Positions 11,501 to 64,000 of a stretch of DNA of 64,000 nt are shown one piece after another. The first letter of the stretch is position 1. Each line of letters starts with the position of its first letter. A program made the translations under genes and the position numbers. Source of the stretch: an uncultured Veillonellaceae bacterium. Its GTDB lineage: Bacteria; Bacillota; Negativicutes; Veillonellales; Negativicoccaceae. The notes beneath the pieces are model-generated. The model was not told the DNA's origin and made no database searches. It saw only the letters and a program-made list of their open reading frames with translations. The stretch lies in assembly GCA_945876385.1 (NCBI GenBank), contig CAMCNU010000006.1, positions 1-64,000 of the forward strand, in the 5' to 3' direction.

Positions 11501-13404
11501 CCCTTAATCGCGTCGTATACCGTTCCGCCCGTGACGATGCCGCTACTATCTTTGTCCACAGTGCCATCGGCATTGACCGTGACGGTATACGCTTTCCCGC
11601 CGGCGGTATTGGCCGTTTCACTGACGGTCACATTCGTTCCGCCTGCCACGGTGGTGTGCTTCTTCGCTTCCGCTTTGGCTTCATCGGCTTTATCATCTAC
11701 CGCTTTCAGCTGATTTTCCGTGGCCGCTCTTCCACTGGTGATTTGGTCTTTGTTCCAAGTGGTATTGGTAAGACCGGTAATACCGACGGCTCCTGTCGTT
11801 CCGTCAATGGTTACCGCTCCTATCGTCACTTTATCTGCCAAGCTGACGGTGTATTTATTTCCGGCAGCCGTCACGGTGACGCCTTTCGCGGTATCGCCTT
11901 CTACCGTCACTTTGCGGGCGGTGATTTGATTGTCTACATAGGTTTTCACTGTTGTCCCGGTGACGAGATTTCCGTCTTTCGCTCCGCCGATCGTACCGTC
12001 TTTGGAAATATCGAGGGTATAGATAATGCCGGCCGCCGTAGCGTCTCCTTTTTCCAAGGTGAGTTGACTATTTGGAGCCAGTTGCACACCTACTTTCGCG
12101 GCTTTGAGCTGGGCGACGTTCACCGCGTCGGTGTCAGCGGTCCCGGCGGCAAGGCCGGTGAGTTGACGCGTTTTCTCCGCGCCTTTGCCGATAGCCACCG
12201 AGGCCAGGGTAGATGTCCAGGCGTTACCGGAAAGAGTGGACGCAGCATCTTCTCCCGCGTTATAGCCGACGACCCCTTTGTCTACGGTCGCCTCGGAGTC
12301 TTTGCCCAAGGCCACACCGTTCTCTACTTTCGCTTTCGCATAGAGACCCGCCGCGACAGAACCCTTCCCGGTTGCATGAGCCGAAGAGCCCAGCGCCAGC
12401 GCCGATTCTGCGGTGGCTTGCGTACTGCCGCCGAACGCCGTGGAATATTTCCCCGTCGCTTGCGCGCCTTTACCTACGGCGGTAGCCTCAGTAATGCCGT
12501 TCCCGCCGGCATAGGTATTCGTACCGATAGCGATATTATCGCGATTGCCTTCCGTTTTGGCGGAAAGTCCCATGACCACGGCTCCCACAGAATTAGCCAC
12601 GGTGCCTTGCCCGATAGCCACACTGGCCGTCCCGGCTATCTGTTCTACCACCGCACCGTTCCCGATAGCGACGCCATTCCAATTCTTTGCTTTTGCACCG
12701 TTACCGATAGCCACGCCCAATTTGGATGCTTCCGCGCTTTTCCCCAATGCTACCGCCGAGGTACCCGTGGTTTTTGACTCTTCCCCGATGACCACACCGT
12801 GCGCGCCGCTTTCCACTTTGTAACCAATCCCGATAGCCCTATTATGGTCGGCAGTGATGTTGTTTCCGATGGCCACATTAAATGTATCGCCACCCGTACC
12901 GTTCACCGTTAAATTATTGCCGATAGAAACACTGCGCTGACCATTGTTTACATTATCAGAACCGATAGAAATCACATGACCTTTATCGACAGTAGTGTTG
13001 TATCCCAAAACCACATTGTTTGTCTGCCAAGCTCTCTTTATTCCGGGCTTTACATTATTTGAAGTCCCTAAATTAAGTCCCTGACCGATGGCCACTGACT
13101 GGTTCGTCCAAACTCTGATTTGCCGCCCGATGGCATAGCTATGCACGCCGAAAAGATCCCCCGGTTGCCCGGATGGCGCACCGATTTCCACCCCTTCCCC
13201 CACGGCAATCCCTTGGTCGGCATACACTTTTACATTTTTACCGATACCGATGCCGTTATCATTTTGCACCACCGCGGAATCATCGGGGGAAATTTTCGTT
13301 CCTTCCGCCATGGCAGACGCGCTCCCCAGAAGGGCCAACCCCACCAAGGCGGCGAGAGATTTCTTCCAGGCAATATTTCTTTTTTTGATTGTACGCAATG
13401 TCAT
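8587..13404 (-). CDS. Trimeric autotransporter adhesin (YadA-like), complete, 1605 residues
   Basis: An outer-membrane trimeric adhesin. Order of parts: extended basic signal sequence (1-34, ending SASAMA), YadA-like left-handed-helix head with many 'VAIGxxA' repeats (about 35-420), neck TDAVNVAQLKAAK (about 425), a long stalk of repeated beta and coiled-coil modules, a second neck DAVNMRQLMSL, and a YadA anchor barrel (LHPLDYDPDNKWDMAVGYGH to VNVGISLKVGSG, about 1470-1550). Unusually, about 50 further residues of charged coiled coil (KEIKALKAQNEAILEK...) follow the barrel, and the protein ends in AQLLAK. The stalk includes a 378-bp near-identical direct repeat. The start has GGAAGGAT upstream. 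It is monocistronic from the promoter at 13527-13556. Confidence 0.95.
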   Translation of the reverse strand: MTLRTIKKRNIAWKKSLAALVGLALLGSASAMAEGTKISPDDSAVVQNDNGIGIGKNVKVYADQGIAVGEGVEIGAPSGQPGDLFGVHSYAIGRQIRVWTNQSVAIGQGLNLGTSNNVKPGIKRAWQTNNVVLGYNTTVDKGHVISIGSDNVNNGQRSVSIGNNLTVNGTGGDTFNVAIGNNITADHNRAIGIGYKVESGAHGVVIGEESKTTGTSAVALGKSAEASKLGVAIGNGAKAKNWNGVAIGNGAVVEQIAGTASVAIGQGTVANSVGAVVMGLSAKTEGNRDNIAIGTNTYAGGNGITEATAVGKGAQATGKYSTAFGGSTQATAESALALGSSAHATGKGSVAAGLYAKAKVENGVALGKDSEATVDKGVVGYNAGEDAASTLSGNAWTSTLASVAIGKGAEKTRQLTGLAAGTADTDAVNVAQLKAAKVGVQLAPNSQLTLEKGDATAAGIIYTLDISKDGTIGGAKDGNLVTGTTVKTYVDNQITARKVTVEGDTAKGVTVTAAGNKYTVSLADKVTIGAVTIDGTTGAVGITGLTNTTWNKDQITSGRAATENQLKAVDDKADEAKAEAKKHTTVAGGTNVTVSETANTAGGKAYTVTVNADGTVDKDSSGIVTGGTVYDAIKGKADTATVNNIKTEIEGKLDNKAHKNLGNLDETGKTVVRDLAKESVKVVNGTNTTVEEGTEGKAKTYKVNVSNDAIKAAVAEDLGNKADKTALAGYARIDGSNITIPGTWATKLGIGNVVNDDKNLVTGGTVYNALQESLSGEVSASNTTKGVTGDKIKKAIDANTTTVKAADGSQVTVKAGTADANGTTYTVDISKDGTIGGAKDDNLVTGETVKQYVNGQITGSKVTVKAGDYATVTTSDDGKTYTVKGTTIEAGTDGHITVADKMQGDKKVGYTLSVKTDGKVKENDTGIVTGGTVYNAIKDKANNSLSNLTESGKTEIKTLAKQAVKVGNGTNTTVETVEENGVTTYKVNVATDGEVTDGNTGIVTGGTVYNAIKDKVNKADLSGYAKTDATNINADKWAEKLGTGTVAKDDKGLVTGDTVYHAIKDKANNSLSNITEAGKTEIKTLAKQAVKVGAGTNTTVETLEENGVTTYKVNVATIGKVEESDTGIVTGGTVYNAIKDSLSGDISDANTTKGVTGAKIKQYVDGQLAGNKVTVEAGNHVTVTPTDNADGSKKYTVAVKTDGTVTDGNTGIVTGGTVKAALDDLAGATNLTEENVNAWRGKLGNGKVETGNKGLVTGDTVHKAIEANKTTVEGDEEKGLTVSKAGNTYKVSLEDKVKVGAVSIDGTEGKETIAVGDTLTMNKDGIALQNGPKLTTTGVDAGSQVISNVADGKKKTDAVNFGQLGALADKVDAVIVEAKKHTTVEAGANVTITPADNADGSKKYTVALQDTLTGLAKVETKALSVGDVAIDDTGIHAGNRAISGVADGKAPTDAVNMRQLMSLGSEWNGRLNEVGAGAAALAALHPLDYDPDNKWDMAVGYGHYRGAHAASLGAYYRPNEYTLFTVGGSIGGGDNMVNVGISLKVGSGEKDGVIASKADMAKEIKALKAQNEAILEKSQKMEAENQDMKKELEELKAQVAQLLAK
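10056..10590 (-). repeat. 378-bp direct repeat in the autotransporter stalk
   Basis: About 155 bp from 10056 recur nearly unchanged from 10434 (offset 378 bp = 126 residues). Both encode TYKVNVAT / NGTNTTVET / KTEIKTLAKQAVKVG / KDKANNSLSN stalk units. This points to recent tandem duplication of a stalk module. Confidence 0.8.
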
Positions 13405-46689: not shown

Positions 46690-46765
46690 GGACCATTAGC
46701 TCAGCTGGCAGAGCACCTGACTCTTAATCAGGGTGTCCAGGGTTCGATCCCCTGATGGTCCACCA
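46690..46765 (+). tRNA. tRNA-Lys (anticodon CTT)
   Basis: A 76-nt cloverleaf including the encoded CCA. Acceptor GGACCAT pairs with ATGGTCC, the D-arm is GCTC..GAGC, the anticodon loop CTCTTAA has CTT at 46723-46725, and the T-arm is CAGGG TTCGATC CCCTG. It has its own promoter and a terminator directly behind. Phage genes start just beyond its 3' end, so this end is a plausible attachment site; the second copy would lie outside the window. Confidence 0.97.
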
Positions 46766-46773
46766 CCCTTTTT

Positions 46774-46806
46774 ACCCTACAGTCCGTCCAACTGTAGGGT
46801 TTTTAC
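46774..46806 (+). terminator. Terminator of tRNA-Lys
   Basis: A perfect 10-bp stem ACCCTACAGT / ACTGTAGGGT with a 7-nt loop, then TTTTAC and more T, eight bases after the CCA end. Confidence 0.9.
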
Positions 46807-46883
46807 TTTTTAAGCCTGTCATTACAGTGTTTCTCGCTCTAGCAGTTACCCGTGGGGGAAAAAAGGGGGAAAATTATTTCAAA

Positions 46884-46914
46884 TAAAAAAAGGAGCGGAC
46901 AAAATGCCTGCTCC
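46884..46914 (-). terminator. Terminator of tRNA-Trp and of the phage late transcript
   Basis: On the minus strand GGAGCAGG ... CCGCTCC with one bulge, followed by TTTTTTTATTT. It lies 14 nt past the 3' end of tRNA-Trp. Confidence 0.75.
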
Positions 46915-46927
46915 GTTATGTTCAAAA

Positions 46928-47003
46928 TGGCACGGGCGGTAGGATTCGAACCTACACCTAACGGTTTTGGAGACCGTCGCTCTGCCAATTAAGCTACACC
47001 CGC
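46928..47003 (-). tRNA. tRNA-Trp (anticodon CCA)
   Basis: A 76-nt cloverleaf with encoded CCA (46930-46928). Acceptor GCGGGTG / CGCCCGT, anticodon stem ACGGT / ACCGT, loop CTCCAAA with CCA at 46970-46968, T-arm GTAGG TTCGAAT CCTAC. Bases 11 and 24 are the normal C-G pair, so this is not the UGA-suppressing Hirsh form. It lies 45 nt past the last phage lysis gene on the same strand. It may be the host's only tRNA-Trp or a phage-borne copy; this cannot be decided from the window. Confidence 0.95.
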
Positions 47004-49862: not shown

Positions 49863-52001
49863 TCACTCAACGCCGATCTCTGCACCGTTCGGCAATTTAA
49901 TTCTGTTTGTAGAAGTATAAACGTCGTTTTTAGCTAAATACGCGCCTTTCTGTTGGTATCTTTTATCGCTTTCCGTTTTAGTATAGACGTTAGTACTTAC
50001 CGCATAATCGCCTTTAGGCTGAAATTTCTTGTCAGCTTTCGTTTCCGTGATATACCCGCTAATATCGGCGGCGGTAAGATAACTTCCTTTTGCTTGATAC
50101 CGCCCGTCGCTCTCCGACTTCGTGTATGTCGTTTGTCGGATCGTTTCCGTCGCGGCCTGCGTCACGGCGTCTTGCACGGTCGACAGTTTCCCATCGGCTT
50201 GTTGTTTCGTATATACCGCATCCGCGTCGGCTTTGCCTGCCAGTGCCGTCGCATCGGCTTTCGTTGCCAGCGCGCGTGTCATCTCTTCTTTATCGGCTTT
50301 GCCCAATAGCGCATTTTCCACGGTCGCCCGATCGGCTTTTTTGCCCAACTCTTTCGCCATGGTAGACGCGAAATTCGGATCATCGCCGAGCGCCTTTGCC
50401 AATTCTTCCAGCGTGTCCAGCGCTTCCGGCGCGCCTTTCACGACCGCCGCGGCCGCCGCATCGACGTACGCCGTTGTCGCAAGACCGACCAGCGAAGACT
50501 TACCGGCATAGCGCGTGTCGCTCTCCGCCTTCGTGTACGCGTCAATTTTGTCCGTCTTTTTAAGGTAGCGCGCATCCGCTTTCGTCTGCGTCAGTACGTC
50601 ACCGCCCGCAATGGCCGCGGCCTCATCGGCGTATTTCTTTGCTAAATTCGCCTGTTGTGTCGCTCCCACTTGCGCCGTGTTGGCGGCGCGCGCCTGCTCA
50701 TTTGCGGTTTGCGCATCCGCACTTGCCGCTCTTGCCGACGCGGCGGCTTGCTGCGCGTTATCCTGTACGCCTTGCGCGATCGTATTGACGCGGCTCTCGG
50801 CTTGGAGTACTTCGGCCGCTGCGCGTGATGCGCTTGCGGCGTCTGCGGCGACGTTTTTAGCGGCGGCGCGTGTTGCACTCTCCGCGGCGAATGCCCCCGC
50901 TGCCGCGTTGACCGCTTTCGTCATCGCCTCTTGCGCAAGCCCACTGTCAGCGGCAATCTGATGTGCGGTATCTTTGACGTTCTCCAGCTCCTGCTGCGCG
51001 CTCGTCAGTATTCCCGTGGCGGCCTTGACTTTCGCGTCGTATTCGCTTTTTGCCTGTTCTATTTCCGCGGGTAAATCTTTGTACCGTGCCATCTCTTTCA
51101 CGGCCGATGTGCCCGCGGATACCGCCGCCTCGATCCGCGCCGTCTGCCCTTTGGCATCTTCCAGGCGCGCATTGACTTCTTCGCCCTTTTGCGCCATGAC
51201 CGACACGGCATCCTGCGCGATTTTCTGCAAGTCCGCCCGTGCCGTATCGGTGTCTCGGCGTACTTGATCACCCGCGGCATGAACGTCTTTCAGCACCGAT
51301 TTCGCGTCATTCGACGCGGCCTTGATCTCGCCGACTTGCGCGGCGCCCGCGCTTGTAATTTCTTCCAGTTTGTGCCGCGCCCGTTCGTCCAGTGCCGTTC
51401 GGCCGATTTCCACATGACGATCCAGCTCCTGCCCCGCCTGCGTCTGTTTCTCGCGCCAATTTTTGTATAGCGTCGCGACGTTTTCTTTCAGCCGGCGCAC
51501 ATCGTCCGCGTCTTGCAACGTTTCTCTCCGCGCGGCCAATACCACGCGCTCATGCTCCTGCCAATCGGGCAAGTCCACAACTTCCAGGCGTGTTGCGTCA
51601 GCGTTAAATCGTAAAAAGGCAAACGGCCGTCCGCTTGGGATCAGTCCGCCGAACTCGCCGACAGCCACGCCGACCCCCATCTCTTGAAGGATCATCGTGA
51701 TCTTGTCAAAGGCGCTCTCGATCCGCGCATCGCCGAAGTCCTGTTCTTGTGACCGCGGCGTCTCGCGTACCAGCTTCAACCGCGCCCCTTTACCCAACGG
51801 CGCCCCCGTTGTCGGGTATTCGTAGCGTTTTTCGCCGTCGTGGTACTCGTAATTGCCCGTGATGCGTGTCCATGTCCCGTCCTTTTCAATGTAGCCGACA
51901 ATATCCTTTTTATCCCGATACCGGTACGGAAAAGGGAACGACGTTTGCACGCCGTCCCCGACATAAACAATGCTCGTTTTCGTCTCTTGTATCATCGTCA
52001 T
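49863..52001 (-). CDS. Phage tail fibre, T7 gp17-like N-terminus with coiled-coil shaft
   Basis: 712 residues. The first 120 resemble the T7 tail-fibre attachment domain (TSIVYVGDGVQTSFPFPYRYRD, ITGNYEYHD). A long Ala-rich coiled coil follows (about 150-470), with repeats of the form YTKxESDxRYxxKxxY and AGKADADA in the last 200 residues. The protein ends at IKLPNGAEIGVE. It lacks an obvious C-terminal receptor-binding head, which may be supplied by the small proteins encoded next. Its ATG overlaps the preceding stop as ATGA. Confidence 0.85.
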   Translation of the reverse strand: MTMIQETKTSIVYVGDGVQTSFPFPYRYRDKKDIVGYIEKDGTWTRITGNYEYHDGEKRYEYPTTGAPLGKGARLKLVRETPRSQEQDFGDARIESAFDKITMILQEMGVGVAVGEFGGLIPSGRPFAFLRFNADATRLEVVDLPDWQEHERVVLAARRETLQDADDVRRLKENVATLYKNWREKQTQAGQELDRHVEIGRTALDERARHKLEEITSAGAAQVGEIKAASNDAKSVLKDVHAAGDQVRRDTDTARADLQKIAQDAVSVMAQKGEEVNARLEDAKGQTARIEAAVSAGTSAVKEMARYKDLPAEIEQAKSEYDAKVKAATGILTSAQQELENVKDTAHQIAADSGLAQEAMTKAVNAAAGAFAAESATRAAAKNVAADAASASRAAAEVLQAESRVNTIAQGVQDNAQQAAASARAASADAQTANEQARAANTAQVGATQQANLAKKYADEAAAIAGGDVLTQTKADARYLKKTDKIDAYTKAESDTRYAGKSSLVGLATTAYVDAAAAAVVKGAPEALDTLEELAKALGDDPNFASTMAKELGKKADRATVENALLGKADKEEMTRALATKADATALAGKADADAVYTKQQADGKLSTVQDAVTQAATETIRQTTYTKSESDGRYQAKGSYLTAADISGYITETKADKKFQPKGDYAVSTNVYTKTESDKRYQQKGAYLAKNDVYTSTNRIKLPNGAEIGVE

Positions 52002-53596
52002 TTCCCTTTCTTGACCTTACGATCAAATACCATATTCGCCACCGCTTCTTCCCATGTCGCGTCCGTATCCGTGCAAGCCACGCGTAAAAAGGTAAACACG
52101 GCATCCGTGAGCGTGTCCGAAAAACCGACCATACGATTTCCGATCCGCGCGCCCGCTCGACCCGCGTCGATCCAATCCTTTTTGTCACTGCTCGCCGCCG
52201 ATACAAACTCCGATACGTCGTCAAGCACTCGCAACGCTACCACCTGCCCGCCGCGCGACGGGAAGTAGTCCCCCGTCAGTTGCATGGTAATGCCGTTTAC
52301 CGCGTCGCGCACGATCGGTATACCGCCGACCAGCGTGCCGACGGCGTTTTGTGTGTACTCTTTCATGAATCGATCGAAAAAGTCATCATCATCTCCGCGT
52401 CCCGTCAGCGCGTCAATCGACATTCGCAACAACGTTTCTATCGCCGCCTGCAGGATAATCCATGCGAATACCGTTGAAATCAGCGGGCGAACATCGCCCC
52501 TGTCTTTCAGCGCATATCCCGCTTCAATATGCGCGTTCAGCACCGTGGAGAAAAAGGTATAGAACGGGGTGAAGTACTTCATGATACGGCCTTTTTGCAC
52601 GCGCGCCATACCTTTCGTTTCACCGGATCCCCATACCCGTCGAACGGCTTCGTCCGCGCGGGAGACCGCCTCGGCCTCGATGAGTTCCGGATCCGTTGCG
52701 CCCTGCTCGATGAGTTCGCGTACCGTGTCCTCGTACCGCGCCTGCCACGCGGGAAGAGAGAGCATCAAATCCGTCTTCGTGATCGCGTAGTACCCGAATC
52801 GGTCAATCTGCCTTTTTGCATCGGCAAGCACGCCGACCGGTAGCGTTACGCCCGCGACTGTCGTTTCCTTACCGCCGATCCGCATACCGCGCGCAAGGTC
52901 ACGATCCAAGTTGTCCTCACGCTCGGCCAGGAAGCTCGATTTTCCCTTAATCGTCCGCGCCCATTGCTGCGGGTGCAGATAAAACTTCAACAACGCCCGC
53001 GTGTAACGCGCCGGGCCGATCTCCCACGCCGCCATCGGGAAGTTGCATATGTTCAGCGCCGCCGTAGTCGTCCGATACGCCATTACCGCAAAGACCGAAT
53101 TGCGCCGCAAGGTTTCCGCGTACATCTCCAGTCCTTTCGCCATTTCCGTTTCTTCGCGCCAGCAGTCGCGTACCCATTGACGAAGCGCGCGGTATTGACT
53201 GTTGCCGATAATCTTTTGCAACGATTCCGCCAAATCTCCATGATCCAACAAATGCGCCACATCCAGCACCGCCTCGCGCATGGAGATATGCAAAATTGCC
53301 TCATTCAACGCTCGCGGGATCACGTCAAGCGACAAGAACAACTCACGATTCACCACGGCTTGCCGTTGCTTAGTCGCACCTAACCCCGCACCGAATACCG
53401 CATTGGATGACATTTGTCGTTGCAATTCCTGCGCCACTTCCAAATCGCTCGCGCGCGTGGATAGCTGCGGATCGTAGACAATCGGGTAGTACCCGCCTTC
53501 AAAATAACGACCGCCGATCTCAAACCCCAGCGGCGCGACCTTTTTGATCGGTACGCCGCGCTCGCGTTCGTTGATCTTGCTGCGTTCGTCAAAGTA
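51998..53596 (-). pseudogene. C-terminal part of the giant ejection protein, separated by an in-frame TGA
   Basis: The frame runs on from the giant gene without shift: after ...VWSLLD-TGA it reads YFDERSKINERERGVPIKKV and stays open for another 532 codons. No ATG or GTG with a ribosome binding site exists near its beginning. The first usable start is a TTG at 53443 with no ribosome binding site, and coding-like sequence precedes it. Content: helical, with hydrophobic segments (YFTPFYTFFSTVL, LISTVFAWIILQAAIETLL). It is either a nonsense-interrupted gene end, a read-through product, or a sequencing error. Confidence 0.75.
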
Positions 53597-56500
53597 TCAA
53601 TCCAGCAATGACCATACCATTTCTACGGTATCCCAGTCACGCCGATCAAGAATCTCGGCAAACGCTTCTTGCATATCGCGCTCGCCGACGCCGAACGTGA
53701 AGCACGTTCGCTGCCGGTTCTCTTTTGTTCCCCAATTAAGCGCGGCGCATAGGATTTCCTCTTTCGTGTATCGCGCCCGATCGCCTACGGCATACTTGCG
53801 TTTTGTCCGCATATCCCGCAACTCCGCGGCGCTATATCGGCGAGAGAATATCGCCTGCAAATCGCGCTTACCCTGCGCCGTCATCTGCCGTTTTGTATCA
53901 CTTGCCCGCGAGATCGGCTCGAAGATATACCGATGAAACAAACCCGCCTGATCCGTTCGCCCGTCCAACCGATTAAGGATGATCTCCGGCTTGATCAATT
54001 CTGCCAGCAGACCGCCCCCGGTGTGAACGACCTTATCAAGAAGTGTCCGCTCCTGTTCGATTTTGCGCAAGTCGCGAGTATCACGACCGAATCGATCGTC
54101 CAGCTCGGCGCGTAACTCTTTGGCCGCCTGTTCGATCGCTACCGTGTTACCGCTTGCGTCCTTGATCGTCACTCCTTCCTGCGTTCGCCGTCCGACTCGA
54201 TACACTACCTGCAACACTTCGGCGACATCGGCCCATTCTTCCATTGTCAAGCGTCGCCACATCTTTTCGTCACGGCGCGTGCCGGCGAATAACTGGCGCA
54301 CGACGTCCGGCAAGATCTCTCCCGTTCCTGCGCCAAACTCCGCATCGACATCCAGCAATCGCGCCACCGCCGCCAACTCAAACCCGTCAGACGGCATCGT
54401 GGCGTCCGTATTCGCCAAACCTAACCGATACATCGCATGCTCGATAAAATACCGCGACTGCGTGTCCAGGATCAGTGGCGCGTCTTTGCGCCCGATCCGT
54501 CGTAAATTCTCTTTCAAACGGCGGGTATCCTTCTCGACTTGCTCGCGGGCTGCGACGGCGTGTTTTGCCAAGTACACGTGGTACAGTTGTCGCTGCTTCA
54601 TTTCCGCGGCGGTCGCATAATCGCCTTTAACCGCGGCCTTGCTTGCCAGCGTGCCGTAATAGGATACCTTGTTCTGGTATGTCCGCCATGTATACGCTTC
54701 TCCTACCGTACCGCGTAAGATTGCCTCTTTTGCTTGCGCCTCGATCTGTCGGATCTTGCCTTTTGTGCTGTCGCGTACCAGGCGCAACCCGTTCAACCGT
54801 TCCTGTATGTCTTGCTTTAACTTCGCCCGCGCGTTTTCCAACCCGCTCGTATCCGTGTCCTTGATCTTACGAATACGCCCCGCAAGTTCACGGATAGAGT
54901 CTTTCGCGCCGACTTCATCGGGCACTTCGCTCATCAGGAAGCTCAAAATCTCGTTGATCCGTTCCCGATTCGTAAATCCGTCAGGCAACGGTTTGTCTTT
55001 ATCCTTGACAAATTCGAGCAATTCTTCTACACTGAGTGTAGAAACATCGGAGTGTTTGGTATCGGATGCGTCGGGTAATTGCCCTTCGGCCGATTTGAGC
55101 CAATCTCCGATGTTATTTTCATTTATCGACTGCGTATCATAATAAAAACTACCATCTAGACGTTCTTTTACCACACTTCGAGCAAGTACCCATTTGCCTG
55201 AAAGACGTACTACGCCATACAAAACGCTTACACTACGTACATCTCCTCCGCCTCTTTTATCTTTTTGCTTTTGTACAACAACGCTATTCGCTAAAATCCG
55301 GTCAATCGACCCCAGCAACATTGCGACATCAAGTGTTCCCGTGCTAGCTGTACTAAGTGCGTGATCGATTCCTTTACGGCTAATTTGTATAACGCCTAGT
55401 TCAGGATGTGTTACTCTCTCCGGTACATTACCTTTCAGCCACCTCTTCACCTTCGTCCGATACTCCGCCCAATACGGATTATCCGGTAAGTCCTTCCCGC
55501 GTTTACCGGCATTATACGCCTCATCCCGCGCGTTTTGCGCCGCTACCAACTCGGCCGGCGGCTCGAGCGCCTTTGGCGTCGTTACATGGACGACGTTGAC
55601 ATCAGGTTTTGCCACCAGTTCCGCCATTGTCGGCGACTCGGGGAGTTCTCCGTCATGGAGTTGTCTCGGCAATACCTCGCCGTCAAGCTCTCTAAGCAGC
55701 TCCATATACTTTGTCGCAAGCGTCCGTTTTTTCCGCTCGATCCGCGCCAGTTCTTTTTCGGTATAGAGCGCCTGCGCTTCATCCGACGCCATTCGCTTGA
55801 TCACTCGCTCTTGCAGCGCTTCCGGTGACAATAATTCTTCTTCAAACGCGGCCCGTTGAGCGGCCTCTTCTTTCACCAAGCGCTCGTCAAGACCGCCGCC
55901 CGCTTCGGCCAGCGCGTCTTTGAACGCCGCTTCGTTTTCGTAGTACTTGCTGATGACGTCATAGCCGTACGCGTTATACAACGCTTCCTGCCGATAAATG
56001 GGCAATTGGGAAAGTTCTTCGCGCCGTTTGTTGCGCCAGGACTGTAACATCGATTCAAGGAGCATTTTGCCCTCGTTTTCCGCAAGTTCCGTGATCTCCC
56101 GATGGACTTCTTCAAACAATCCGTCCTTGAGCGCTTCCTTGCTTTTCGCCAGCGCTTCATCCGCCACCACGATTTCATCCAGCGCCCGCTCGGCGGTATA
56201 CGCGTCAATCTGATCCTGTACGGCAAGCATACGCTCCATAACTTGCTGCACGTCTTTCGGCGGGACTTCACCCAACCGGATCAGCGTTTCATAAATGCCT
56301 TTCAGCCACTTTCTGAAACGACGGAATACGTCGCGCAAGTCTTTCGTCGGCGCCTTGCCTTCGCGTACATAGGCCTCAAAGCCGCGGGCAAATTTTTCAT
56401 GCGCATTCGTATTGTCTTTGGCGTCGTCTTTCCAGCCTGTCCACCCCTTGACCGTTTCCCAGTCTTTACGGATCCAGTCCGGGGCGCTTTCGTTTTCCGC

Positions 56501-59500
56501 CAGCATCCGCAAATCTTCCAAAAACACATGCCCCGATTCATGGATAAAGGTAGAGAAGTTCGCCCCGTCACGGAACAGTGTCATCACCCGTTTGCCGTTT
56601 TCGATTGACGTCATGCCGCGTACGATGCGCCGATTCCGTGATTGTGTCGGCGACGCCTTGCCGGTCTTCATCAAGTCCTGATAATACGACAAGGGCTTGA
56701 GCAGGGCGGAAGGATCCACGCCGTAAAAATCGCTCAAAAACTTACCACTCGCGGTACGTTGCCGTTGCGCGAATTGCAGAAAATGTTCGACTAAAACCTT
56801 ACGCGGTAACGACTCGATCTCCGCCAGCGTAATCGCGGGCGTGATCGTAAGTCCCGATTGCGCCGCAATACCGTCCGGGCTTTCCAGATCCGCGTACAAC
56901 TTACCGAACCCGCGTACGATTTCCGCTTTCGTCCAACGACTCAATGCCTTGTATCCGGCAATCCCCGCAACATCCCAACGCACAATGTCGTTTTCCGATT
57001 GGAAGAATGTATCCTCGACCGGTGCATATTGCCCTTCATCCGACGTCAGCCACGCCACGTTCCCGACCGGCACGCGCTTACTGTACACCTTGCCAGATCC
57101 GGCGTAGTCTTTAGCCATCATCCGGCTCGGTGTGACGAATCCGCCGTCCTCAATCGGATGTGAACTGTATACGGTAATCTCTCCCGCGTTTAGTGCGGCC
57201 GCGCCGTCCTCGGGCGTAAAGTCGGGATAAACGTAATTTTCTTCGTCTGCTTGCCCCCGTGCGCCGAACACTTCTTCCGGTGAGCGGATATCCGTGACGG
57301 TGCGCACTCCGACGTGATAGTCGTCCTGCATCGGGTTTGCCGCCAAGATGAGTTCCAGTTGCCGCTGCTTGCGCGATGACGGTACTTCGTCGGCTTGCAG
57401 ATACGGATTGCCGTCCATATCCTTGACACCTTTGAGCAAATCGTGTATAGTAATTTCAGATGCAACAGCAGTTGGCGGCATCATGGTGACGTTAAGGTCA
57501 CTCCTGCCGGACTGCTGTTGCTTCTTTTTTTGTTCCGGGATAACGTCGTACAAAAATAATTCCGCGCCTTTAACCGTAAGCTGGTCGGCCCGCGCCTCCA
57601 CAACTAACCGAATCGGATAAATACCGGTCCCGACACGAACCGCGGCATAATACCGATGATACTGTTTTGCCCTCGGTTTCTTTTCCGCTTTACGATTCGC
57701 CCCGGTCTCAATACGCTTTGCGTGGCGCAAAACATCATACAATATAGCAGCGGTCGCATTTTTAATCTGCTTTCTTTTGCCCCTGAATCTGGCGGGTGAA
57801 AACGCGATGTGCTTCGCTTCTTTTTTACCCATACCGATGCGCGTATCGTCTTTCAGTACGAACACCATGTCGTCAAATCCGCCAAGCAGGCGCGCCAATT
57901 TCGCCTTCAAATCCTTGCGGGTTAATGCTTTGTGCGCCTTTACTTCGGCCGATATGTCGATGATTTCCAGTGTCTCGTTCGGGTCTACGTCGTCGTTGAG
58001 TTGCCAATACGGCTGTGCCGCCTTCTCGTCACCGCCGAATGTATCCGCCGCAAAGATCGGATGCATCTCGAGATAATCTGTCGCGCTGAACTCTTTATGC
58101 CCCATGTCTTGCATAATCTTGGCAAACGTTTCGGCGCGTTTCGCCCACAAAAAGGCGGCCTGCTCCGCCGACTGCGCCGCCTCGCCGCCGACCGAAGTCA
58201 GCACGTCCTGCACCTTGCGATAGACGGCCAGTCCGTCATCCGTCAGCGACGCTTTCAAGGTCAGCATGCCCGTATCTTGTACGCGGTAAATATCATCCCG
58301 CAAACTTTCCAGCGCTTCCAATTGCGCGTATGTTTCTTTGCCCCGTTCGTATAGCGCCATGCCCTCGTCATAGTTGCCCGCGTCGGGCGCCTGCTCAATG
58401 TCCTGCTTTAACTGTTCCAGGGCGATATCATAATATTCCGCCCAGCGGGGCGCGCGACCATGCGCTTGGTAAAAATCACTGTACCATAACTCGTTGGCGG
58501 AAAACCGACGCGAGTAGTGAATATCTCGGCCGTCCCAGCCGACCATCTCGCCGTTGCCGTCATACGGTAGCGCATCCACGCCTTCCCCGTGTTGGCGGCG
58601 CATATTCTCAACGCCGCCGGTAATTTCGTCAAGCGTTGCGATCAAGCCGGTTCGTACCGTTTTGTACCCCTCGCGTAAATTCGTCGGATTGGCGGCCATA
58701 ACAGACCGTACCGCCGCCTTGTCCGTATCGGAAAAGGCGGAAAATTCCGCATTGACCACACTGTCAATAGCCTTTGCCGTACGTTCCATTTCGCGTTGCA
58801 ACTCGGCCGCGTACTTGCTTTCGGCTAACGTTTTGCGCCGTTGCGTGATTTCCGCGGGAAGCATACCGCCTTCCGTCCACGTGGCCGCCGATTCCGTCAA
58901 GTTGCGCTGCTCTTCCGTTAAATCGGCCTGCAGATAAGTCCCTACCGGTATCTCAATGCGCCCTTCCGCGGCAATCGCGGCGTTGAGCGCATCTTTTGTG
59001 ACGGTACCCTGCCGCACTAATTCATTCAGCACGTTACGACCGTTTTCCGTTTCCATCAGCGTTTGCGCATCCGCCCAAAACGCGCCGACCCCTGCATTGT
59101 CCGCCGCCTGTTGGACAGTCTGCCGGTATAACTCGGGATCTTTTTTGTACAACGGATTTGACGCCCGATCCTTGATCAGATCGGACACCATCTGCCGACC
59201 GATCGAATTGGTCGCCGCCTCTTTTTGCATCTGAAATTCCGGCAGCATCATATGCGCTGCTTTATTAACGAATCGAACGTTCGCGCCTGCCCCCATCAGC
59301 AGGGACATCCCCAGCACGGCGGGCGCTGCGTCCCATCCGGCCTGCAAAGAGTTCGCCACCATATCCGCCAGCGGAATCTTCCTTGCGCCGTTCGTGCCTG
59401 TCGCTATTGCGTTCCACACCGCATTGCCGGCCGCTTCCTGCAATACTTCTTCCGTGATTTCCGCGCCCGCGCTCATCGCGCCCGCTTTCAGAAACGTTTT

Positions 59501-60604
59501 CGCCGCGTCTTTGATGTTCGTCTCGGTGGCAATCGCCCGTGCCGCGCGACGGATAATATCGTCCGCCGCCGTCTTGCCCGTGACTTTGCCGACGACGCGC
59601 CGCCCCATCGCCAGCGCCTTTGCGCCGATAATCCCCGTACCGAACTCCAGCGCCGCCTCACTAATCCCGACGGCCTTCGCATAAGTCGCGGCGTCCTGCA
59701 CGCTCATGCGGCCGTACTCGTTACCTTGTCGTGCTTCGATATAAGCAAGGCCGCGCGACATCTCGTTCATCCGATTGGCCTGCCCCATGTTCCAGCCGAG
59801 AAACGCGCCCGACCAAAATCCCGCATGCGCGCCCGGAAGCGCCCCGATACCGCCTACGGCCCCTCCCGCCGCCGCGCCCGCCAGCGCGCCCGTCCCTGCA
59901 CCGACCAGCATCTCTTTCCCCGACCGCGCCGTCATATCGGCCGTCATATAGACCTGACCGGCGGTATCGTGAATAAATGCGTCGTCGCCCGTCTGCGCCC
60001 GCGCATAGGCGGCTAGCTCTCGGATTCTTTCGTCGATTTCCGTCGTGTCCAGCCCCTGCTCCTCGCGCGCCATTTTTTCATCGCCCAGCCCCGACATTTT
60101 CAGCTGCGCGTCCATCTGTCGCACGCCACGCAATGCATTTTCCACGACGCCCATCGTCTCATGGATCGGCGCGTAATTATGCACGCGGATTGCGCGGTCC
60201 GTCGCGGAGATATCGTCCCAGTCACTCCAGACGCGGGCAAATTCGTCGGCGCGCTTGCCCGTTTCCATGACCTCAAACGTACGTTCCCACGCTTCCAGTG
60301 ATTCTTGCCCCGCGGCGCTGACCACATCGACGTCGACGCCCATGCGCGTTGCCAGCTCTTTTGCGCGGCGATTGTAGTCTTCTTTGCTCCACAGATACGA
60401 ACGACCGACCGTTTTCGCGATATCCTCGCCCGCCTTTTCCACCCACGCCTTCGCCCCGTCCCATGTACCGGCGCCTGCTTCCGGTGTCGCCTGCTGCGGC
60501 CGCTTGTCGGCCATAGTGGGCGTCGGGACGGCTTTCGGTAATCCGAACGCCGGATTATCCGCATTTGCTAAAAACTCTTGTTCCCACGCTTTCCAGTTGC
60601 TCAT
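53597..60604 (-). CDS. Giant phage ejection/polyvalent protein, 2335 residues (N-terminal part)
   Basis: It occupies the T7 gp16 position. Features in order: helical N-terminus; a glycine-zipper membrane-active stretch (ALAGAAAGGAVGGIGALPG, about 230-250); a first nuclease-like module with KKEAKHIAFS near 931 and YRYYAAVRVG-type strands; a module with VYSSHPIEDGGFVTPSRMMA; a zincin motif HESGH near 1355 with HEKFARGFEAYVREGKAPT behind it; long helices; and a second nuclease-like module (ISRKGIDHALSTASTGTL near 1745, YGVVRLSGKWVLARSVV, FYYDTQS). These resemble the PBECR-type and zinc-peptidase domains of 'polyvalent' phage proteins that enter the host with DNA. The start has AAGGAGTG. The frame ends in a TGA with the same frame continuing beyond. 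Confidence 0.8.
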   Translation of the reverse strand: MSNWKAWEQEFLANADNPAFGLPKAVPTPTMADKRPQQATPEAGAGTWDGAKAWVEKAGEDIAKTVGRSYLWSKEDYNRRAKELATRMGVDVDVVSAAGQESLEAWERTFEVMETGKRADEFARVWSDWDDISATDRAIRVHNYAPIHETMGVVENALRGVRQMDAQLKMSGLGDEKMAREEQGLDTTEIDERIRELAAYARAQTGDDAFIHDTAGQVYMTADMTARSGKEMLVGAGTGALAGAAAGGAVGGIGALPGAHAGFWSGAFLGWNMGQANRMNEMSRGLAYIEARQGNEYGRMSVQDAATYAKAVGISEAALEFGTGIIGAKALAMGRRVVGKVTGKTAADDIIRRAARAIATETNIKDAAKTFLKAGAMSAGAEITEEVLQEAAGNAVWNAIATGTNGARKIPLADMVANSLQAGWDAAPAVLGMSLLMGAGANVRFVNKAAHMMLPEFQMQKEAATNSIGRQMVSDLIKDRASNPLYKKDPELYRQTVQQAADNAGVGAFWADAQTLMETENGRNVLNELVRQGTVTKDALNAAIAAEGRIEIPVGTYLQADLTEEQRNLTESAATWTEGGMLPAEITQRRKTLAESKYAAELQREMERTAKAIDSVVNAEFSAFSDTDKAAVRSVMAANPTNLREGYKTVRTGLIATLDEITGGVENMRRQHGEGVDALPYDGNGEMVGWDGRDIHYSRRFSANELWYSDFYQAHGRAPRWAEYYDIALEQLKQDIEQAPDAGNYDEGMALYERGKETYAQLEALESLRDDIYRVQDTGMLTLKASLTDDGLAVYRKVQDVLTSVGGEAAQSAEQAAFLWAKRAETFAKIMQDMGHKEFSATDYLEMHPIFAADTFGGDEKAAQPYWQLNDDVDPNETLEIIDISAEVKAHKALTRKDLKAKLARLLGGFDDMVFVLKDDTRIGMGKKEAKHIAFSPARFRGKRKQIKNATAAILYDVLRHAKRIETGANRKAEKKPRAKQYHRYYAAVRVGTGIYPIRLVVEARADQLTVKGAELFLYDVIPEQKKKQQQSGRSDLNVTMMPPTAVASEITIHDLLKGVKDMDGNPYLQADEVPSSRKQRQLELILAANPMQDDYHVGVRTVTDIRSPEEVFGARGQADEENYVYPDFTPEDGAAALNAGEITVYSSHPIEDGGFVTPSRMMAKDYAGSGKVYSKRVPVGNVAWLTSDEGQYAPVEDTFFQSENDIVRWDVAGIAGYKALSRWTKAEIVRGFGKLYADLESPDGIAAQSGLTITPAITLAEIESLPRKVLVEHFLQFAQRQRTASGKFLSDFYGVDPSALLKPLSYYQDLMKTGKASPTQSRNRRIVRGMTSIENGKRVMTLFRDGANFSTFIHESGHVFLEDLRMLAENESAPDWIRKDWETVKGWTGWKDDAKDNTNAHEKFARGFEAYVREGKAPTKDLRDVFRRFRKWLKGIYETLIRLGEVPPKDVQQVMERMLAVQDQIDAYTAERALDEIVVADEALAKSKEALKDGLFEEVHREITELAENEGKMLLESMLQSWRNKRREELSQLPIYRQEALYNAYGYDVISKYYENEAAFKDALAEAGGGLDERLVKEEAAQRAAFEEELLSPEALQERVIKRMASDEAQALYTEKELARIERKKRTLATKYMELLRELDGEVLPRQLHDGELPESPTMAELVAKPDVNVVHVTTPKALEPPAELVAAQNARDEAYNAGKRGKDLPDNPYWAEYRTKVKRWLKGNVPERVTHPELGVIQISRKGIDHALSTASTGTLDVAMLLGSIDRILANSVVVQKQKDKRGGGDVRSVSVLYGVVRLSGKWVLARSVVKERLDGSFYYDTQSINENNIGDWLKSAEGQLPDASDTKHSDVSTLSVEELLEFVKDKDKPLPDGFTNRERINEILSFLMSEVPDEVGAKDSIRELAGRIRKIKDTDTSGLENARAKLKQDIQERLNGLRLVRDSTKGKIRQIEAQAKEAILRGTVGEAYTWRTYQNKVSYYGTLASKAAVKGDYATAAEMKQRQLYHVYLAKHAVAAREQVEKDTRRLKENLRRIGRKDAPLILDTQSRYFIEHAMYRLGLANTDATMPSDGFELAAVARLLDVDAEFGAGTGEILPDVVRQLFAGTRRDEKMWRRLTMEEWADVAEVLQVVYRVGRRTQEGVTIKDASGNTVAIEQAAKELRAELDDRFGRDTRDLRKIEQERTLLDKVVHTGGGLLAELIKPEIILNRLDGRTDQAGLFHRYIFEPISRASDTKRQMTAQGKRDLQAIFSRRYSAAELRDMRTKRKYAVGDRARYTKEEILCAALNWGTKENRQRTCFTFGVGERDMQEAFAEILDRRDWDTVEMVWSLLD

Positions 60605-60607
60605 GTT

Positions 60608-62749
60608 TCACTCCTTAAAAGGCACGTTATTGTGCTGCCCTCGGGCGATTTCATCCAGCCAAAATTCCTCGTTGCTCTGTGCCACATCGACATACCGTCC
60701 GTCGGGTAAGTAATACCGACGATACCCGCCGCCGATATCCACCGCGTCGCTGTAACCGTACCGATACGCCAAATCCGCGCGTGTATGATTACCGACCGTG
60801 TTTTCAACGAGCAGCTCCGCCGCCCGACGAGTGACCCATTCCTGCGGAGGCTCGTTGCCGTTGTTGTTGTTGCGATACGTCACGACTTCTTTCGCCAGCG
60901 CCACCGATACCCCCGGCCACGTTTCTTTGTATTTCGCCAACTCGGATGGACCCATCGACTTGCCCAGCAAACCGAATACCGCTTCCTTTGTCGGACCGTT
61001 TTTGTAAGCGTATTTACCCGTGCCCGCGTTATAGTCATTGATTTCGTTTTGTAGGCTTCGCATCTGCTCAAACGTAGGCTGTAAACCTTGTTTCTGAAAA
61101 ATCCGCGCCAGCTTATCCGCGCCGGTCAGCCACTCGCCATCAGACATTTCATCGATAAACTCTCCCCGCGCAATGCCCTGTTGTATTGCGCCCATGTGCC
61201 ACTGCTGCACCTTTGCGCCCTCAATATCCAGTGACCGTAAGGCGGCGCGGAACGTGTCGCGCAAATCAGGATTGCCCGCCGTCATTTCACGAATCCGTTG
61301 CGCCTGCTCGCGCGGCGGGAGGTCTTCCACGCTTTCCTCAATCGCGCGCTGTTGCGCCTTTAGATTTCCCAACCACTGCCGCTTGCTTTCACTTGCCTTC
61401 GCGGCAAATGCTTTCCACGCCAGCTCGCGCCGTTCGTAACGCTGGCCCTCGGTAAGGCCGCCGCCCATCCGTTTTGTGACGCTGTCCATATACTCTTGCA
61501 CCGACGGATACGCCGTGCCGTCGTCGGATACTTGCGGCGCATTGAGCGCTTCTTGCGACCAGCCCGTCACGGGAGAACCGTGATACCAGCACGCCGCCAT
61601 TTGTGCTGCGTCGCCGCCTGTCAAGTCGTAGTAATGCTCGGCCATCGTGCGCGCGACCTTCTCTTGATTTTCCGGTGTACGCGGCGCGTCGGCGCTTAAC
61701 CCTGCCTGCGGTGCGTACTGCGCCCACGTCTGGTCCGTTATCTGATACGCTCCGCGCGCGGTGATTCCCGACGCCGCGTTGCTCTCGTTGATTGCGTCAT
61801 AGTTTCCGCCGCTTTCCTGTCCCCTAATGGCGCGCAAGAATCGTTCCACCACGTCCGCACGGCTGCCGCCCATAGCGGGAAACAGTGCATTAAACGCCTC
61901 GGCGAATTGCTCTTGCGTCACTTCCCAGGATCGAATCCCCCGCGCCGCAAAATACTCGTCCATCGTGTTGGCGCTGTCGCGGGCCGTCACTACCATCTTC
62001 TTTTCCTTGTTGGCGCTGTCGAACTTCGACAACATGTCCGCATCGACAAGGCCGCTGTCTTTTGCCTCGTCAATCATGGTCGTTACCTTGTCATACTCAC
62101 CCGCCGCCAGCGCCGCCTCGATACCGCGCTTGGCGACGTCCGTATACCCCTTGCGGCGAACGGCCTCCATCCCCGCCGCGTCCGCGTACGGATCCTGTAA
62201 GGCCGCCGCCCTGTCTGCCGCGGCAAATCCCGCCGCAAGAGAACCTGTACCGACCACGCGTTCCAGCGCGGATTCCATGTCGTTACTGATAGTGTCTTTG
62301 AGATACTGCTGCCGCCCCTGTTCTTCCAGCTTGAGAATCTGCGCGTCGTCGCTGACAAGACTTTGCTCGGCGTGCTTACGGTACAGCTCTTCCCCACGCT
62401 TTGTCTGAATCCCCGCGTTGCGATACACGTCCTCGCGGACCTTCTTTTCCAGCTCCGTGTACCGCCCGCGCATGCCTTCCGTGTCCTTGCCGCCTAAGTA
62501 CGCCAAACCGCCCTCACCGTACATCACCTCGTTCATCCGGCGCGTGTACTCGGCGTTCGCGTTCACGACGGCCAGTGCGTCGGCGTCTTCACGGCGTTTT
62601 GTTTCCACGCCCAGCATCACGCCGAACGCCTTACCCAACCCCTGCCACGATTCGCTCTCACCGCCTCGCGTCTCGAGATTGCCCGGCGCTTGCGTGATAC
62701 CGTTGGCCAGATTCTCTCTGACTTCGCGTCTGTAACTCTCCAGCTTCAT
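60608..62749 (-). CDS. Phage internal virion protein with lytic transglycosylase motif
   Basis: 713 residues, largely helical. A lysozyme/SLT-like module sits in the middle: RAIRGQESGGNYDAINESNA with the catalytic Glu near residue 311, then GAYQITDQTWAQYAPQAG and CWYHGSPVTGW. In podoviruses such domains locally open the murein while DNA is ejected. The N- and C-terminal parts resemble T7 gp15/gp16-type core proteins only in general character. GGAGAGAG precedes the ATG. It is encoded 3 bp upstream of the giant gene. Confidence 0.82.
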   Translation of the reverse strand: MKLESYRREVRENLANGITQAPGNLETRGGESESWQGLGKAFGVMLGVETKRREDADALAVVNANAEYTRRMNEVMYGEGGLAYLGGKDTEGMRGRYTELEKKVREDVYRNAGIQTKRGEELYRKHAEQSLVSDDAQILKLEEQGRQQYLKDTISNDMESALERVVGTGSLAAGFAAADRAAALQDPYADAAGMEAVRRKGYTDVAKRGIEAALAAGEYDKVTTMIDEAKDSGLVDADMLSKFDSANKEKKMVVTARDSANTMDEYFAARGIRSWEVTQEQFAEAFNALFPAMGGSRADVVERFLRAIRGQESGGNYDAINESNAASGITARGAYQITDQTWAQYAPQAGLSADAPRTPENQEKVARTMAEHYYDLTGGDAAQMAACWYHGSPVTGWSQEALNAPQVSDDGTAYPSVQEYMDSVTKRMGGGLTEGQRYERRELAWKAFAAKASESKRQWLGNLKAQQRAIEESVEDLPPREQAQRIREMTAGNPDLRDTFRAALRSLDIEGAKVQQWHMGAIQQGIARGEFIDEMSDGEWLTGADKLARIFQKQGLQPTFEQMRSLQNEINDYNAGTGKYAYKNGPTKEAVFGLLGKSMGPSELAKYKETWPGVSVALAKEVVTYRNNNNGNEPPQEWVTRRAAELLVENTVGNHTRADLAYRYGYSDAVDIGGGYRRYYLPDGRYVDVAQSNEEFWLDEIARGQHNNVPFKE

Positions 62750-62765
62750 CGCTCTCTCCTATACG

Positions 62766-62790
62766 AAAAAAGCACTCCGAAGAGTGCTTT
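62766..62790 (-). terminator. Terminator-like hairpin after the gp14-like gene
   Basis: Stem AAAGCACTC / GAGTGCTTT with a TTCG loop, followed by TTTTTT on the minus strand, at the stop codon of the gp14-like gene. It probably trims or tunes the late transcript. Confidence 0.75.
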
Positions 62791-63419
62791 CACCACTTAC
62801 GCCACGGCTTGCTCTGCGCGAACGAACTGCCCGTGCGCCAGCTGCTCGTGAGCCTGTCCGACGCATCCGTAATCGGCTTGGGCATCTTCAGACCGCCCGC
62901 GGCCTTACTTGCTTTCCCGGCCGACGCCAGCCCCGCCTTCATTCCCGCATACTGTGTCGCCGCGCCTAAAATCGTACTGACCATCGCCCGCCGCCCGGCC
63001 GCCTTGGCATTGGCCGCACCCGCTCTCGCCTGCCGCGCCTCTTCACCGTACCCCCAGCCGCGCGTAAATTCGCTGTACGTGTCGTTGCGCTGATTATGCA
63101 ACAGCGCCTGTTTGTCTTGCAAATACCCGCCGTACGATGCGCCCAGTACGTCCATGAGCGAACCGCCCTGCGCAAGACCCGCACTGCCGCCTTCCGCCGC
63201 GTTTTGTCCTGCCGTAAGGCGCATATTGTCTCGAAGCCGTTTCTCTTCCCGGCCGTACTGCTCGGCCATATCTTCCTGCCGCCGCTCACTGATTTTCTGA
63301 TTCGCCAGCGCAGCCTTCTCCTGATCCTGATACATGCGTACCTGCGCCGCCGTTTGTGCCCGTTGGCCAGCGACCTGCATCGCTGTCTGCGCCACTAAAA
63401 ACGCTGCCGGATGACACAT
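62790..63419 (-). CDS. Phage internal virion protein, T7 gp14-like
   Basis: 209 residues. An N-terminal hydrophobic/helical region (AAFLVAQTAMQVAGQRAQTAAQ) is followed by a long charged helix (KISERRQEDMAEQYGREEKRL) and Gly/Ser-rich loops (GGSAGLAQGGSLMDVLGASYGG), the general pattern of gp14-type core proteins that form an outer-membrane channel on ejection. AAGGGGGA precedes the ATG. The position between gp13-like and transglycosylase genes fits. Confidence 0.75.
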   Translation of the reverse strand: MCHPAAFLVAQTAMQVAGQRAQTAAQVRMYQDQEKAALANQKISERRQEDMAEQYGREEKRLRDNMRLTAGQNAAEGGSAGLAQGGSLMDVLGASYGGYLQDKQALLHNQRNDTYSEFTRGWGYGEEARQARAGAANAKAAGRRAMVSTILGAATQYAGMKAGLASAGKASKAAGGLKMPKPITDASDRLTSSWRTGSSFAQSKPWRKW

Positions 63420-63420
63420 G

Positions 63421-63882
63421 CTAATTCCCCCTTAAGATAAATTTGATAAACTCCACACCGCCGACCGTGACGCGTCCGCCCCACTCGGCGCCCAGCCACG
63501 TAAGCCACCGCCGCGACGGCGTGTTGCTCATCGACACGTAATTAACCAGCGGCGCATAGTCCTCAAGCCACCTGTCAATCACGCGGCGGCTCTCTTGCAT
63601 AAAATATCGTTTGTACGGATTATCCCGCCCCAAACACCAAATCCCGTACTCACCGTCCAGCGGCACCAGTCCCAGCCCGTACACCCACACCGGGCGGCCG
63701 CTCTCGTCAAGTACGGCATACGACACGCCGTTTTCATGAAATACCGACTGCACGACCGCCTCGGCGCCCGACAGTCCGAACGCCGTACACTCTTCCAAAT
63801 CGTGCGGGCGCAGCTCGCCCCCCAGCGTCTCCAGCGCCTCACGAGAGAGCGTTCTCGCATCAACCGTTATGAGTGGTGACAT
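63421..63882 (-). CDS. Phage protein, T7 gp13-like (GNAT-like fold)
   Basis: About 153 residues from the ATG at 63882. The segment LEECTAFGLSGAEAVVQSVF, then VYGLGLVPLDGEYGIWCLGRD, YKRYFMQESRRVIDRWLED and a C-terminal VNYVSMSNTPSRRWLTWLGAEW follow the T7 gp13 (internal virion protein A) pattern, which looks like a degenerate acetyltransferase. In T7 gp13 is needed for assembly. The ribosome binding site is weak (GGCGG). It overlaps the upstream tail gene by 23 bp. Confidence 0.72.
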   Translation of the reverse strand: MSPLITVDARTLSREALETLGGELRPHDLEECTAFGLSGAEAVVQSVFHENGVSYAVLDESGRPVWVYGLGLVPLDGEYGIWCLGRDNPYKRYFMQESRRVIDRWLEDYAPLVNYVSMSNTPSRRWLTWLGAEWGGRVTVGGVEFIKFILRGN

Positions 63883-64000
63883 GACCGCCGCCGATAGTAA
63901 ATGACCGAATGATTGCCAACAGGTTAAACGGATACGGCTCGCGCGACGAAATACACACACGGCCGCGCGTGTTAAAGCCCACATCCGTATTGGGCATTGT
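63860..64000 (-). CDS. Tail tubular protein B-like (T7 gp12), C-terminal 46 residues only
   Basis: The frame enters from the right edge and ends at TGA 63860. The visible part has GRVCISSREPYPFNLLAIIR, resembling the C-terminus of podovirus nozzle proteins, where a short strand pair precedes the end. With the gp13- and gp14-like genes downstream, T7 order supports this. The fragment is short, so the assignment is tentative. Confidence 0.5.
   Translation of the reverse strand, partial: TMPNTDVGFNTRGRVCISSREPYPFNLLAIIRSFTIGGGHVTTHNG

What the first reader, a model, noticed from the sequence alone, without database searches (positions are those of the whole stretch)
53597..60604. Giant ejection protein carrying nuclease-like and peptidase-like polyvalent domains
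Seen: HESGH with a following HEKFARGFEAYVREGKAPT block, and two modules with KxxxxH...(R/Y)YxxVR patterns near residues 931 and 1745. Known: polyvalent proteins of phages and conjugative elements combine zincin and PBECR (Barnase-EndoU-ColicinE5/D-RelE-like) domains and enter the host with DNA. Inferred: this T7-gp16-positioned protein both forms the ejection channel and delivers enzymes against host defences or RNAs.
Basis: partly seen in the sequence, partly recalled or inferred. Interest (0 to 1): 0.65.

Follow-up and report, generated by a model that had tools for sequence, protein, structure and literature searches.

The report
Modular phage ejection protein, glutamine-marked junctions
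A giant injected protein of a T7-like prophage carries exchangeable effector modules and a built-in metallopeptidase motif, and a short peptide with a fixed glutamine sits at the module borders here and in dozens of distant phages, which suggests where such proteins cut themselves apart.

Summary
Confirmed: a 2335-aa ORF (53597-60604, -) in gp16 position of a T7-like structural block of a Veillonellaceae prophage. The true gene is longer: an in-frame TGA (53597-53599) cuts off 532 aa (51998-53596) that are one protein in three unbroken relatives.
HESGH and the downstream HExxARGxE block are conserved across distant phages. Neither LPD3 nor the zincin gave a PDB fold match, so activities stay inferred.
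New: residues 866-1330 are an exchange region. Relatives carry LPD3, PBECR5, a divergent ART or undescribed modules there, and the DNA-level swap between window and L002 begins right after one [FYLM]-x-Q peptide (YWQ) and ends at another (YLQA). The peptide precedes the zincin in 45/51 phage proteins (15 expected) and in 11/12 named phages, and precedes several unrelated modules. Proteins without this zincin use another border peptide (FS[ILV]).
Best reading: an injected polyvalent polyprotein whose zincin cuts near the glutamine and frees the modules. Cleavage is inferred; codons vary, so the constraint is on the peptide. The Q/zincin link is not shown to be phylogenetically independent.

The parts
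53597..60604 (-). main ORF, 2335 aa, up to an in-frame TGA
   Evidence: phrog_9880 E=6e-82
51998..53596 (-). C-terminal 532 codons of the same protein, cut off by the TGA at 53597-53599
   Evidence: same frame; phrog_9880 E=3e-46; continuous in L002, L015, L016
58010..60604 (-). N-terminal scaffold, residues 1-865, conserved in all four relatives
   Evidence: alignment
58001..58009 (-). junction peptide YWQ, residues 866-868; left breakpoint of the exchange with L002
   Evidence: DNA identity 0.77 before, 0.40 from here on
57404..58000 (-). cassette 1, residues 869-1067, LPD3 copy a (Pfam match 57584-57919); K928, H932, R999 invariant
   Evidence: replaced by another module in L002 and L036
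57395..57403 (-). junction peptide YLQ, residues 1068-1070; right breakpoint of the exchange
   Evidence: identity 0.44 before, 1.0 over codons 1068-1071
57008..57394 (-). cassette 2, residues 1071-1199: module not in Pfam, phrog_13543-like, also found solo beside a portal gene
56999..57007 (-). junction peptide FFQ, residues 1200-1202
56645..56998 (-). linker/helical stretch, residues 1203-1320, resembles by eye the SKWTK stretch after YFQ in L023
56195..56632 (-). zincin-like metallopeptidase region, residues 1325-1470, HESGH 1355-1359 (56528-56542), HEKFARGFEAYV from 1402
   Evidence: motif conserved in 51 distinct giant phage proteins and in 12 named phages
54935..55537 (-). LPD3 copy b, residues 1690-1890 (Pfam match 1714-1822); absent from L015/L023
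   Evidence: homologous to copy a, hhalign 88%
60608..62749 (-). gp15-position protein with SLT transglycosylase domain
   Evidence: Pfam SLT E=9e-7
62790..63419 (-). T7 gp14-like internal virion protein
   Evidence: phrog_418 E=5e-10
63421..63984 (-). internal virion protein, phrog_308 (weak T7 Gp13 match in Pfam)
   Evidence: phrog_308 E=4e-24
49863..52001 (-). tail fibre gene after the giant gene
   Evidence: Pfam T7 tail fibre N-terminal domain E=4e-4, PHROG tail families

Best explanation
The gene encodes a polyvalent ejection protein of a T7-like temperate phage, built as a polyprotein. A conserved scaffold (residues 1-865 and from about 1325 on) carries exchangeable effector modules, each set off by a short [FYLM]-x-Q peptide. 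Proposed mechanism: the protein is packaged and ejected with gp14/gp15-like partners; its own zincin then cleaves at or next to the glutamine peptides and frees LPD3 (probably RNA-directed) and the other modules in the host. Shown: domain matches, cassette exchange at the peptides, peptide enrichment. Inferred: ejection, cleavage by the zincin, nuclease activity. This prophage copy is interrupted by a TGA, so as sequenced it probably makes no full-length protein.
For: LPD3 twice over cut-off. Same region holds other modules in relatives, PBECR5 and an ART-PolyVal-like one among them. Swap breakpoints at YWQ and YLQA. [FYLM]xQ in 45/51 zincin upstream windows vs 15.4 expected, no other residue comparable; 11/12 named phages. 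[YFL][FY]Q[SAT] 51 vs 14.1 expected in zincin proteins, reversed motif 8 vs 13.3; in proteins with the other border peptide 7 vs 3.6, where FS[ILMV][RKTS] is 28 vs 3.7. Same border type on both sides of the ART. The Q peptide precedes ART, zincin and other shared module families, plus PBECR5 and LPD3. All 38 zincin+ART proteins are Q-type and 0 of 21 non-Q proteins have this zincin. Codons of the peptide vary.
Against: No cleavage was observed. Motif and search windows were chosen after first looks, and one seed pattern of the ART scan contained FQ (removing 4 such recruits leaves 34 Q with zincin, 8 Q without, 21 non-Q without). The ART tree leaves only 1-2 independent contrasts for the Q/zincin link. 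Neither structure model has a PDB match at E<=0.001. N4 vRNAP and P1 DdrB zincins show no such peptide just upstream. In the window itself the zincin has no clean Q site at the usual distance, only YYQ 48 residues before it, and LPD3 copy b has no flanking Q peptide. L036 has few motif sites in its cassette (2, against 8 outside).
Confidence: 0.52

Rival explanations
1. The Q peptides are cut by another protease (phage prohead protease or host protease), and the zincin is an effector against host proteins or a structural part.
For: In P1, DarA is cut by the prohead protease (PMC12810830); the N4 virion polymerase with a zincin is packaged uncut (PMC5512222).
Against: The peptide tracks the presence of this zincin and is not enriched where another border peptide is used, although shared ancestry could explain that.
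Confidence: 0.2
2. The peptide is not a cleavage site but a structural end-cap or spacer, or a shared N-terminal residue of each module, kept by descent.
For: Parts of the set are homologous; the ART tree is unresolved and gives few independent contrasts.
Against: It precedes unrelated modules and sits on both sides of ART; a different peptide replaces it in the same place in zincin-less proteins.
Confidence: 0.2
3. The peptide is a recombination seam: modules are swapped at short shared DNA.
For: Swap endpoints in W versus L002 coincide with it; L038 has two copies of a module with near-identical border segments.
Against: Codons differ between sites; 9-12 bases are short for homologous exchange; Q is kept while its neighbours vary.
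Confidence: 0.08

Closest known systems
Polyvalent proteins of phages and conjugative elements (Iyer et al. 2017, PMC5512222)
   Same: large protein in a virion gene block, LPD3, zincin-type motif, PBECR and ART modules in relatives; domain shuffling, as they describe for Helicobacter prophages; they already proposed processing by the zincin
   Different: sits in the T7 gp16 slot; defined exchange region; a peptide at the module borders, which that paper does not seem to mention ('linker' has 0 hits)
T7 gp16 internal virion (ejection) protein
   Same: gene position after gp14- and gp15-like genes, very large, before the tail fibre gene
   Different: no T7 gp16 profile match; the transglycosylase is in the preceding protein, a swap known for gp15 homologues (PMC8954989)
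Bordetella phage BPP-1 Bbp10 / phrog_9880
   Same: homologous zincin region, same gene order, FYQ peptide before the zincin
   Different: 2052 aa; annotated only as crystallin-motif protein; only its zincin region matched the window protein
Polymorphic toxins with a border motif (CdiA VENN, Rhs DPxxGL; from memory)
   Same: works alike: fixed peptide in front of exchangeable effector modules
   Different: secreted between bacteria, C-terminal toxin only, other motifs; no homology shown

Membership tests
polyvalent protein | two or more domains of the polyvalent set in one polypeptide | tested here: met
   LPD3 twice plus HExxH/E region
polyvalent protein | encoded among virion genes | tested here: met
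   phrog_308, phrog_418, SLT and tail fibre neighbours; further structural-size ORFs upstream to 72898
polyvalent protein | injected with the DNA | not testable with these tools
   inferred from gene position only
LPD3 (PF18798) | profile match over curated cut-off | tested here: met
   60 and 40 bits, cut-off 27
PBECR nuclease | PBECR profile match in the window protein | tested here: not met
   no match at E<=1; PBECR5 only in L016/L036
PBECR nuclease | BECR fold | tested here: inconclusive
   LPD3a model pLDDT 63, no PDB match at E<=0.001
zincin-like metallopeptidase | HExxH helix and a downstream conserved Glu | tested here: met
   conserved in homologues
zincin-like metallopeptidase | zincin fold or Pfam peptidase match | tested here: inconclusive
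   no Pfam match; PDB search of the two-part model without hit
ADP-ribosyltransferase (module at 57008-57394) | profile similarity to ART-PolyVal | tested here: not met
   hhalign probability 0.3%
T7 gp16 | position in the ejection cassette | tested here: met
T7 gp16 | own N-terminal SLT domain | tested here: not met
   SLT is in 60608-62749

The most novel reading that the evidence does not exclude
Many phage polyvalent proteins are self-processing polyproteins: their embedded zincin recognises a [FYLM]-x-Q peptide that marks module borders, so the peptide predicts cleavage sites and module limits; a second class lacking this zincin uses an FS[ILV] border peptide and presumably another protease.
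Probability: 0.45. Interest if true: 0.8.

Novelty: new variant of a known kind. Interest (0 to 1): 0.6.

Why it matters
Self-processing of polyvalent proteins was proposed in 2017 without a site. A border peptide gives exact, testable cleavage positions in isolated phages such as BPP-1, and a rule for cutting giant phage proteins of unknown function into modules for annotation and assay.

Tried and rejected
PBECR for the KxxxH modules: no profile match, no fold match. ART for module 2: hhalign negative. PDB sequence search of module 2, LPD3 and zincin: nothing credible. ncbifam and padloc: nothing. Viral scans with the PBECR5 module and the two LPD3 alignments gave no new relatives. LPD3, PBECR5 and ART searches in about 300 genomes of the phylum gave 4, 0 and 1 genomes with a match. 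TGA recoding: rejected, TGA ends many genes here and the neighbouring tRNA-Trp has anticodon CCA. P1 DdrB and N4 vRNAP as positive controls: no such peptide just before their zincins. L002's cassette 1 as an LPD3 relative: only its C-terminal tail is similar (20%).

Full report
What is there. The 2335-aa ORF is real. It stands in a T7-like block: phrog_308 and phrog_418 internal virion proteins, an SLT protein, then this gene, then a tail fibre gene. The same order is annotated in Pseudomonas phage UFJF_PfDIW6, BPP-1 and the methanogen virus vir555. The host is probably a Veillonellaceae relative: the same-family genome G001 appears to be MAG SUG113, judged by its 41,890-base contig.

The gene is broken. 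The ORF ends at an in-frame TGA; 532 further codons follow in the same frame and match the C-terminal part of phrog_9880. Three relatives are unbroken at 2794, 3068 and 3023 aa and carry sense codons there. TGA is an ordinary stop in this genome. Either a recent nonsense mutation or a sequencing error; intact copies exist elsewhere.

Domains. Both KxxxH modules are LPD3; they are homologous to each other (hhalign 88%), with K, H and R invariant in six copies. LPD3 occurs beside PBECR domains in Helicobacter prophages (PMC5512222), but its function is unknown. My AlphaFold model of copy a was weak (pLDDT 63) and found no PDB match, so the nuclease reading is a guess. The HESGH region is the most widely conserved part. 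Residues 1071-1199 are a module without Pfam entry, modelled with high confidence in its core but unmatched in the PDB search of the two-part model; it also occurs as a small solo gene before a portal-like gene and inside other giant proteins, one of which carries ART-PolyVal.

Exchange region. Aligning four relatives shows conserved ends and a swapped middle. Window: LPD3 plus module 2. L002: another module plus module 2. L015/L023: a SKWTK-type stretch, a weak ART-PolyVal match, and LPD3. L016/L036: the L002-type module plus PBECR5. Between window and L002, DNA identity falls from 0.77 to 0.40 at YWQ and rises from 0.44 to 1.0 at YLQA.

The junction peptide. [FYLM]-x-Q stands at nearly every such border. 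In 82 non-redundant giant phage proteins, 51 have this zincin; 45 of them have the peptide 22-60 residues before HExxH, against 15.4 expected from random windows of the same proteins; no other residue in that position behaves so. Eleven of 12 named phages repeat it (expectation 0.32 each; two of the 12, PfDIW6 and BPP-1, are also in the first set). In zincin proteins [YFL][FY]Q[SAT] occurs 51 times against 14.1 in local shuffles; its mirror image does not stand out. It precedes several module families shared between otherwise different proteins, as well as PBECR5 and LPD3. Proteins lacking this zincin carry FS[ILV] in the same places, on both sides of the ART. All 38 ART proteins with the zincin have the Q border; none of the 21 without the Q border has the zincin.

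Limits. The pattern was found by looking, then measured; windows and classes were set afterwards. Rows are related, and a tree of the ART gives only one or two supported independent contrasts. Correlation with the zincin is thus suggestive, not proof of protease and site. The window's own zincin lacks a clean upstream site.

Reading. The specific nuclease family does not. The added point is the border peptide, which I take, at about even odds, for the processing site of the embedded zincin. The library of papers searched holds open-licence papers only, so earlier mention elsewhere cannot be excluded.

Noticed in passing
L062, L072, L073, L078, L088, L095, L104 and others: Giant ART proteins without this zincin carry FS[ILMV] border peptides on both sides of the ART; 28 sites against 3.7 expected.
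   Followed up: partly
L038:6696-8000: Veillonella montpellierensis: a module in two tandem copies, with near-identical border segments ending in YYQS.
   Followed up: no
L019:9132-14000: Human gut phage MT835482: solo copy of the window's module 2 between a large terminase ORF (910 aa, with an insert that looks intein-like) and a portal-like ORF.
   Followed up: partly
46690-47003: tRNA-Lys and tRNA-Trp genes just beyond the left end of the prophage genes; the genome has a second, 80% identical tRNA-Trp-like stretch on contig C23. Possible attachment site.
   Followed up: partly
8587-13404: 1605-aa YadA-type trimeric autotransporter adhesin of the host.
   Followed up: no
L017 (G001 C19): Stop-riddled fragments similar to the LPD3 regions of the window protein, a probable prophage remnant.
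   Followed up: no
L141:6540-12464: phrog_9880 giant protein with ART and zincin in a T7-like cassette of a methanogen virus (vir555).
   Followed up: partly
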